From an uncultured bacterium (GTDB lineage: Bacteria > Elusimicrobiota > Elusimicrobia > Elusimicrobiales > Elusimicrobiaceae), in contig CASEVY010000008.1 of the NCBI GenBank assembly GCA_949291515.1, forward strand, positions 1 through 64,000: a DNA stretch of 64,000 nucleotides. The letters run 5' to 3'. Position numbers and translations under genes: made by a program. The notes under the pieces were generated by a model that was given only the letters and a program-made list of their open reading frames with translations, did not search any database and was not told the origin of the DNA. This document shows positions 3,923-57,206 of this stretch, one piece after another (position 1 is the first letter of the stretch; every line of letters begins with the position of its first letter).

Positions 3923-4576
3923 ATGAGTTTAACCGAATTTGACATTCAAATATCGCAAGAATTTCCATTTTCCAAGATAATCGGCGTCGACGAAGCCGGC
4001 CGCGGCCCTTTGGCCGGCCCGGTTACAGCGGCGGCGTGTTATATACCGCCCGAGCTTTACGGCCACCCAGTAATGGAAAAGATAAATGACAGTAAAAAGC
4101 TCTCCCCCGCCAAACGCGAAAAAATATTTGAGGAACTTATAACCCTTCCGATATTATGGCGTACCGGTTATGCCTCTGCCGCAGAAATCGACAAACACAA
4201 TATCCTTCAGGCTACTTTTATGGCTATGCGCCGCGCTTTGGCATTTTTCGAGGAGGAGAACGCCGTCGTTCTAGTGGACGGGAATCGTCTTATCCCCTTT
4301 GTTCATCATCAACAGCGCAGCATAATAGGCGGCGACGCCAAATCTCTCGCGGTAGCGGCAGCCAGTATAATAGCCAAAGTTTCGCGCGACAGATTTATGG
4401 ATATTTTGGACGACAAATTCCCCCTCTACGATTTTGCGGGCCATAAAGGCTACGGCACAAAAAGCCATATAGCTTCCATAAGGGAATACGGCCCCTGCCC
4501 CCAGCACAGAATGACTTTTGAACCCTTGCTGTCGATGTACGGCGGGCTGTTTGGCGCGGTCGGCAAAAATGTTTAG
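3923..4576 (+). CDS. rnhB: Ribonuclease HII
   Basis: This 217-residue cytoplasmic endonuclease cuts the RNA strand of RNA-DNA hybrids and removes single ribonucleotides from DNA. The type 2 RNase H signature GVDEAGRGPLAGPV is at residues 21-34, with catalytic Asp23 and Glu24. A DGN motif lies near residue 117, an AKVSRDRFM helix follows, and the end carries the usual H-x-G-Y-G-T element. Length is normal. The start lacks a ribosome site and sits 6 bp after a -10-like box. It heads a + operon and overlaps yraN by 8 bp. Confidence 0.97.
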   Translation: MSLTEFDIQISQEFPFSKIIGVDEAGRGPLAGPVTAAACYIPPELYGHPVMEKINDSKKLSPAKREKIFEELITLPILWRTGYASAAEIDKHNILQATFMAMRRALAFFEEENAVVLVDGNRLIPFVHHQQRSIIGGDAKSLAVAAASIIAKVSRDRFMDILDDKFPLYDFAGHKGYGTKSHIASIREYGPCPQHRMTFEPLLSMYGGLFGAVGKNV

Positions 4577-56288: not shown

Positions 56289-56852
56289 ATGCAATTGTTC
56301 ATCAACATAGACGGCGGAAGCCGCGGCAATCCCGGCCCAGGGGCAAGCGCGTGCGTAATAAAAGACAAGAAAGGAACTCTGCTTAAAGGAGAAGGCCTTT
56401 TTTGGCCGCAGTGCACAAATAATCAGGCGGAATTTAACGCTCTTAAACTGGCTTTGCAAAGAGCGCGGGAACTCGGCGGAACGGAACTTTACATAAGAGC
56501 GGATTCTCAACTGTTGGTAAAACAATTTTTGGGCGAATACAAAATAAAAAATCAGCAGCTAAAAGATTTGATGGCGGAAATAAAACAGCTTTGCTCCGCC
56601 TTTAAAAAAATAAATATCCAGCATATTCCGCGCGAACAAAACAAAGAGCCCGATCTTATCTGCAATCAGACGATGGATAAAGCCTTAAAAAAACCCGCCG
56701 CGCCGATACGGCCCTTATACAACCACTTGTCTTCCGCGCCAGAACAAGAGGGAAAGAAAGCGCAAGCAATTCCGCTCAAAAAGAACAAACCCGAAAAGAA
56801 AAAAAGACAAGACCCGATACAGCTTGAACTTTTCGACTTAAATAATTTATAA
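56289..56852 (+). CDS. Ribonuclease HI-family protein with a C-terminal clamp-binding-like motif
   Basis: The 187-residue product has an N-terminal RNase H domain to about 135: NIDGGSRGNPGPGA (first catalytic Asp), TNNQAEFNALKLAL (Glu), RADSQLLVKQFLGEYKIKN (Asp), then HIPREQNKEPD (final acid). It resembles the archaeal/RNase HI-like branch. Residues 140-177 are a Pro/Lys-rich linker. The tail QLELFDLNNL has QLELF at 178-182, matching the sliding-clamp-binding pentapeptide consensus (QL[SD]LF). Family members usually end at about 140-150. rnpB follows within 10 bp and its promoter lies in this gene. Confidence 0.9.
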   Translation: MQLFINIDGGSRGNPGPGASACVIKDKKGTLLKGEGLFWPQCTNNQAEFNALKLALQRARELGGTELYIRADSQLLVKQFLGEYKIKNQQLKDLMAEIKQLCSAFKKINIQHIPREQNKEPDLICNQTMDKALKKPAAPIRPLYNHLSSAPEQEGKKAQAIPLKKNKPEKKKRQDPIQLELFDLNNL

Positions 56853-56853
56853 A
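56824..56853 (+). promoter_or_regulatory. rnpB promoter inside the end of the RNase HI gene
   Basis: TTGAAC (56824-56829) and TATAAA (56848-56853) are 18 bp apart and point to a start near 56860, matching the 5' end of the P1 helix of RNase P RNA. The -35 box overlaps codons of the QLELF tail. Confidence 0.5.
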
Positions 56854-56860
56854 ATATAAG

Positions 56861-57178
56861 TACTGAACGGCAGACCGCCGCATAAAAGCGGAGGAACTTC
56901 CGGACTCCCAGGGCAGGGCGCCGCGCGAAAGCGCGGGAGGGCGGGGCCATATCCCCGTTCGACGGAAAGTGCAACAGAAAAAATACCGCCCGCAAGGGTA
57001 AGGGTGAAATGGTAAGGCAAGAGCTTACCGCGCAGACGGCAACGCCTGCGGCAAGGCAAACCCCGCTCGGAGCAAGGCCAAATATGCCGATATACGGCCC
57101 GTATGTTAAGGCAGAGTAGGCCGCATAGATAAATGGTCTGCGCGCGCAAGCGTACAGAATCCGGGGTATAGTTCAGCG
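56861..57178 (+). ncRNA. rnpB: RNase P RNA (bacterial class A)
   Basis: The conserved core is recognisable. P1 is CTGAAC (56863-56868) pairing with GTTCAG (57171-57176). P4/J strands are GAGGAACTTCCGGACTCC and ACAGAATCCGGGGTATA. The GGGTGAAATGGTAAGGCAAGAGCTTACC stretch, the GTGCAACAGAAA turn and GATAAATGGTCTGC match the consensus order. Length about 318 nt. It processes the 5' ends of tRNA precursors. Exact ends are estimated. Confidence 0.96.
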
Positions 57179-57206
57179 CGCCGCTTTCGCGGCGCTTTTT
57201 TCTTTT
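57178..57206 (+). terminator. Terminator of rnpB
   Basis: The stem GCGCCGC/GCGGCGC with loop TTTC is followed by TTTTTTCTTTT directly after the RNA. Confidence 0.9.

What the first reader, a model, noticed from the sequence alone, without database searches (positions are those of the whole stretch)
56811..56852. RNase HI with a C-terminal sliding-clamp-binding motif
The protein ends in QLELFDLNNL. QL-x-LF is the consensus by which polymerases, MutS, MutL and others bind the bacterial beta clamp, and it often sits at a flexible C-terminus. Here it follows a Pro/Lys linker of about 38 residues beyond the RNase H domain. This would tie hybrid or primer removal to replication, as PCNA does with archaeal and eukaryotic RNase H2.
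Basis: partly seen in the sequence, partly recalled or inferred. Interest (0 to 1): 0.6.

Follow-up and report, generated by a model that had tools for sequence, protein, structure and literature searches.

The report
RNase HI with clamp-binding tail
In one order of gut and environmental bacteria (Elusimicrobiales), the enzyme that destroys RNA paired with DNA almost always ends in a short tag of the type other replication proteins use to hold the DNA sliding clamp, so it probably rides with the replication machinery, by a different attachment from the one known in E. coli.

Summary
The ORF at 56289-56852 (+) is a 187-residue RNase HI with all four catalytic acids; it ends in a disordered tail, QLELF-DLNNL. 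The host is an Elusimicrobiota MAG. Shuffled tails give a mean of 0.2 of 107, and other ORFs in the fetched DNA 2 of 773. The linker (11 to 109 residues) is not conserved and the motif codons vary synonymously, so selection acts on the peptide. A competing DNA-level reading, that the stretch is the promoter of the RNase P RNA gene 7 bp downstream, fails: the motif persists in 18 loci where Rfam finds no rnpB.

Supporting the clamp as partner: the genome's DnaN keeps 13 of 21 clamp-pocket residues identical, and Pol IV-type polymerases of the same family end in QLxFxF. Outside the order most relatives lack the tail (3 of 41 have it). No paper found in the held library reports a clamp motif on a bacterial RNase H; E. 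coli RNase HI is recruited through SSB. Binding itself is untested. New variant of a known kind.

The parts
56289..56852 (+). rnhA-like gene: RNase HI (RVT_3 branch), 187 aa plus stop
   Evidence: ORF; Pfam RVT_3 and RNase_H; catalytic D8, E48, D72, D122
56289..56687 (+). RNase H catalytic domain, residues 1-133
   Evidence: Aligned to PDB 3u3g and 3hst; AlphaFold strands and helices of the RNase H fold, block pLDDT mostly 77-96 for residues 20-120
56688..56819 (+). disordered Lys/Pro/Ala-rich linker, residues 134-177
   Evidence: pLDDT under 50 for residues 126-175; not conserved among relatives
56820..56834 (+). QLELF putative beta-clamp-binding motif, residues 178-182
   Evidence: QxxLF kept in 103 of 107 order-level homologues; codons vary synonymously
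56835..56852 (+). DLNNL extension and stop; relatives have 0-5 residues here, often starting with D, E or G
56859..57184 (+). rnpB, RNase P RNA class A: neighbouring gene, tested and rejected as the cause of the conservation
   Evidence: RF00010, 188.8 bits

Best explanation
The protein is an active-site-complete RNase HI whose flexible C-terminal tail ends in a beta-clamp-binding motif (QLELF; Q[L/P]xLF or QxxLF across the order). The motif probably inserts into the hydrophobic pocket of DnaN, so that the enzyme is tethered to clamps on newly made DNA while the long linker lets the RNase H domain reach nearby RNA:DNA hybrids: Okazaki primers behind the fork and R-loops it meets. Shown here: the sequence, its conservation under protein-level selection, the predicted disorder of the linker, the intact catalytic residues, the conserved DnaN pocket. 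Inferred: physical binding to DnaN, and the choice between primer removal and R-loop clearance.
For: QxxLF at the C-terminus in 103 of 107 homologues of the order; chance 0.2 by shuffling, 0.26% in other ORFs. Fixed Q, L, F with variable codons: CAA 51 / CAG 55, all six Leu codons, TTT 76 / TTC 30, 85 distinct codon sets among 106 motifs. Linker length 11-109 residues, median 47, unconserved. The motif persists in 18 loci in which Rfam finds no rnpB nearby. Own DnaN: R152, L155, T172, G174, R176, L177, P242, V247, N320, Y323, V360, M362, P363 identical to E. coli. DinB-type polymerases of the sister genus end in QLxF[D/N]F, the place of the E. coli Pol IV motif. DnaE of the family has an internal xxxLF. 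QxxLF is stated as the general clamp-motif consensus in PMC12309361 and QLxLF as the highest-affinity form in PMC11139829.
Against: No binding data. Most relatives have Pro at position 2 and some have E, D, K, S or G, whereas the reviewed consensus there is aliphatic. The replicative DnaE and MutS of this family lack Gln at position 1, so two established client proteins do not show the full motif here. DnaN differs from E. coli at pocket positions 175, 246, 278, 344, 346, 361, 364 and 365. A complex could not be modelled with these tools.
Confidence: 0.82

Rival explanations
1. The conserved stretch is DNA-level: the 3' end of the gene carries promoter or processing signals of the RNase P RNA gene that starts 7 bp after the stop codon (TTGAAC, 18 bp, TATAAA overlaps the motif codons), and the peptide is a by-product.
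For: rnpB follows at 56859 and follows the RNase HI gene in most relatives. A promoter-like TTGAAC-18-TATAAA can be read by eye at 56824-56853.
Against: The motif persists in 18 loci without rnpB nearby; motif codons vary freely at synonymous sites; 29 relatives that have the rnpB signature downstream lack the motif, 25 of them outside the order; the consensus scan did not list the promoter.
Confidence: 0.02
2. The tail is a genuine short linear motif but binds another partner (a clamp-loader subunit, SSB, RNase P protein or a clade-specific hub) instead of DnaN.
For: DnaE and MutS of the family lack Gln at position 1, and Pro is commonest at position 2 of the RNase HI tails, so motif usage differs from the textbook consensus.
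Against: Q, L and F at positions 1, 4 and 5 are the three key positions of clamp motifs; DnaN keeps its pocket; DinB tails keep QLxFxF.
Confidence: 0.14
3. The tail is a non-functional C-terminal extension whose similarity to a clamp motif is chance or recent shared ancestry.
For: Many of the homologues are close relatives and do not count independently; three members of family f2 and one of g2 lack the motif.
Against: The linker has diverged beyond alignment while QxxLF stayed; the tree needs only 8 changes against 37 for shuffled labels, with the motif throughout the order; chance rate 0.26%.
Confidence: 0.02

Closest known systems
Archaeal RNase HII and eukaryotic RNase H2 with a PIP box (A. 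fulgidus RNase HII, Halobacterium RNase H2, human RNASEH2B)
   Same: RNase H carrying a sliding-clamp motif (PMC4176331; PMC4182655)
   Different: Those are type 2 enzymes and bind PCNA; here it is type 1 (RNase HI) with a bacterial beta-clamp motif, and the genome's own RNase HII has none
E. coli RNase HI (RnhA) recruited to forks by the SSB C-terminus
   Same: Bacterial RNase HI associated with the replisome (PMC11253446)
   Different: There the contact is to the SSB tail; here the enzyme carries its own putative clamp motif on an added tail
E. coli Pol IV (DinB) and Pol II, C-terminal clamp-binding motifs
   Same: Motif in the C-terminal tail (PMC11139829)
   Different: Polymerases, not an RNase H
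RNase H1 of PDB 3u3g and the Mycobacterium tuberculosis Rv2228c RNase H domain (3hst)
   Same: Closest solved RNase HI domains by sequence
   Different: 3u3g is a 140-residue chain whose matched region ends at residue 139, with no tail; for 3hst only a 141-residue domain is in the entry

Membership tests
RNase HI (type 1 RNase H) | RNase H domain by curated profile | tested here: met
   PF13456 and PF00075 over their cut-offs
RNase HI (type 1 RNase H) | Catalytic D-E-D-D | tested here: met
   D8, E48, D72, D122 in the contexts aligned with 3u3g
RNase HI (type 1 RNase H) | Cleaves RNA of RNA:DNA hybrids | not testable with these tools
   Needs an enzyme assay
Beta-clamp-binding proteins | QxxLF or QLxLF pentapeptide in a flexible region | tested here: met
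   QLELF in a tail predicted disordered; QxxLF kept in 103 of 107
Beta-clamp-binding proteins | Aliphatic residue at position 2 | tested here: inconclusive
   Leu in the window protein; Pro in most relatives, other residues in several
Beta-clamp-binding proteins | Cognate clamp with the binding pocket | tested here: met
   13 of 21 pocket residues identical to E. coli, including R152, L155, T172, L177, P242, M362, P363
Beta-clamp-binding proteins | Measured binding to DnaN | not testable with these tools
   No complex modelling or assay available
PIP-box RNase H2/HII | Type 2 RNase H fold | tested here: not met
   It is type 1; the RNase HII is a separate gene at 3980-4522 without the motif

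The most novel reading that the evidence does not exclude
A bacterial order has evolved direct clamp tethering of RNase HI, functionally convergent with PCNA-bound RNase H2 of archaea and eukaryotes. In the window protein and its nearest relatives the motif is closer to the high-affinity consensus than the internal motif of their own replicative polymerase, so RNase HI could compete for clamps left behind on Okazaki fragments and act as a principal primer remover.
Probability: 0.35. Interest if true: 0.7.

Novelty: new variant of a known kind. Interest (0 to 1): 0.52.

Why it matters
How RNase H enzymes reach their substrates in bacteria is only partly known: E. coli RNase HI uses SSB, E. coli RNase HII is reported not to bind the clamp and to ride with RNA polymerase (PMC11253446), and in B. 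subtilis substrate availability rather than protein contacts may be a major driver of recruitment (PMC11352351). An order-wide conserved clamp motif on RNase HI would be a third recruitment route and a convergence with PCNA-dependent RNase H2. It gives a short peptide that can be tested directly, and a clade in which primer removal may be coupled to the clamp.

Tried and rejected
Rejected: the rnpB-promoter reading; chance. Led nowhere: a viral-contig scan found no relatives; a PLSDB protein search found only distant RNase HI, and of three fetched loci the two whose ORFs were read are fusions or longer proteins without this tail. The search for terminal QxxLF-stop in the own genome found 28 places, no more than the reversed control pattern gives in scale (25), and no convincing gene. 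A first tree lost many rows through a faulty start pattern and was redone. Literature searches found no bacterial RNase H with a clamp motif; subscription papers are not held, so absence is not proof.

Full report
What is there. The ORF at 56289-56852 (+) encodes 187 residues ending ...KKKRQDPIQLELFDLNNL. Pfam gives RVT_3 (3.7e-20) and RNase_H (2e-10), residues 5-126. The closest solved chains are RNase HI enzymes, 3u3g and 3hst; the catalytic residues D8, E48, D72 and D122 are all present. It is the only match to the RNase_H family PF00075 found in the 1.5 Mb genome. The closest named relatives are MAGs labelled Elusimicrobiales or Elusimicrobium, so the window is from the phylum Elusimicrobiota. 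AlphaFold2 with a five-sequence alignment gives the RNase H fold to about residue 125 and pLDDT under 50 for 126-175; helix 128-132 is the last element. QLELF is therefore at the end of a tail predicted to be disordered.

Conservation. A search of 341 genomes of the phylum found matches in 185; 155 loci, including a few duplicates, were read. Of 148 distinct homologues with a complete C-terminus, 106 have QxxLF within the last 25 residues. By group, within the last 12 residues: genus g1 18/18, g2 58/59 (the exception reads PPSLF), g3 2/2, g4/g5 2/2, g6 1/1, family f2 22/25 (three end early), other families of the class 3/28, rest of the phylum 0/13. In the order the total is 103 of 107. Shuffling each tail 2000 times gave a mean of 0.2 and a maximum of 3; 773 other ORFs of at least 150 aa in the same DNA gave 2. 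These sequences are related, so the counts are not independent, but the linker between domain and motif ranges from 11 to 109 residues and is not conserved, whereas Q, L and F are fixed. A maximum-likelihood tree of the RNase H domain needs 8 changes of tail state against 37 for shuffled labels; my reading is one gain at or before the base of the order, scattered losses, and sporadic occurrence elsewhere (QAELF, QGLLF, QGELF). The tree has few columns and many open forks.

Protein or DNA level. The RNase P RNA gene (RF00010, 188.8 bits) starts at 56859, 7 bp after the stop codon, and a TTGAAC-18-TATAAA pair at 56824-56853 overlaps the motif codons. This is a serious alternative cause of conservation, so it was tested. 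Codons of the motif vary synonymously: CAA 51, CAG 55; Leu by all six codons; TTT 76, TTC 30; 85 distinct codon sets among 106. Of 20 motif-bearing loci without the rnpB signature within 260 bp, Rfam found rnpB in only 2, so 18 keep the motif without the neighbour in the stretch held. Conversely, outside the order 25 relatives have the rnpB signature downstream and no motif. Selection is on the peptide.

The partner. The bacterial clamp motif is given as QL[S/D]LF or more generally QxxLF (PMC12309361); Q at 1, L/M at 4 and F/L at 5 matter most, position 2 is preferably Leu, position 3 is free (PMC11139829). The own DnaN aligns end to end with E. coli beta; 13 of 21 pocket residues are identical, including R152, L155, T172, G174, R176, L177, P242, V247, M362 and P363. 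In the same family 15 DinB-type polymerases end in, or within about a dozen residues of, QLxF[D/N]F or a close variant (QLFDF), the position of the E. coli Pol IV motif. DnaE has an internal xxxLF lacking Gln at position 1, and MutS mostly xxDLF also lacking it; a variable first position is also reported for many DnaE3 proteins. So this clade's clamp is probably engaged by LF-type motifs, with Gln kept in tail motifs. The mismatch to the reviewed consensus is at position 2, where Pro predominates in genus g2 and family f2.

Mechanism. Most likely the tail docks in DnaN and tethers RNase HI to clamps on nascent DNA, the linker letting the domain reach hybrids. Whether primers or R-loops are the main substrate cannot be decided from sequence. 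In E. coli, RNase HI is brought to the fork by the SSB C-terminus, and RNase HII is said not to bind the clamp (PMC11253446); archaeal and eukaryotic RNase H2 carry PIP boxes (PMC4176331; PMC4182655). The RNase HII of this genome, at 3980-4522, has no such motif.

Novelty and limits. Ten literature searches gave no bacterial RNase H with a clamp motif, but subscription papers are missing and other phyla were not surveyed. I file it as a new variant of a known kind: a known enzyme with a known type of recruitment motif in a combination I could not find described. No binding has been measured or modelled.

Noticed in passing
56289-57184: The RNase HI gene lies directly upstream of rnpB (RNase P RNA, class A), 7 bp apart. 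The same order is seen in most Elusimicrobiota relatives, with or without the tail, and in the actinomycete Nonomuraea gerenzanensis (L300, rnpB about 150 bp after an ORF that starts with an RNase HI domain), so the neighbourhood recurs across phyla.
   Followed up: partly
L301:2483-3760: In Acetoanaerobium noterae the homologous RNase HI domain is the N-terminal part of a 425-aa ORF whose second half looks like an ATP-pyrophosphatase of the LarE type (by eye, not searched).
   Followed up: no
L248-L277 (DnaE), L218-L247 (MutS): The internal clamp motif of DnaE in this family is xxxLF without Gln at position 1 (e.g. ASTLF, TASLF), and MutS mostly has xxDLF; the clade seems to have relaxed position 1 in these clients.
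   Followed up: partly
L298 (G000:C7:442003-442560): The own genome's UmuC/DinB-like gene reads with an internal TGA stop, so it may be broken or frameshifted; 68 of 90 family genomes had no match to PF00817.
   Followed up: no
L094, L095, L127 (family f2, genus g18): Three RNase HI genes lack the terminal motif, ending a short way before rnpB; they would be natural comparisons for a loss of clamp tethering.
   Followed up: partly
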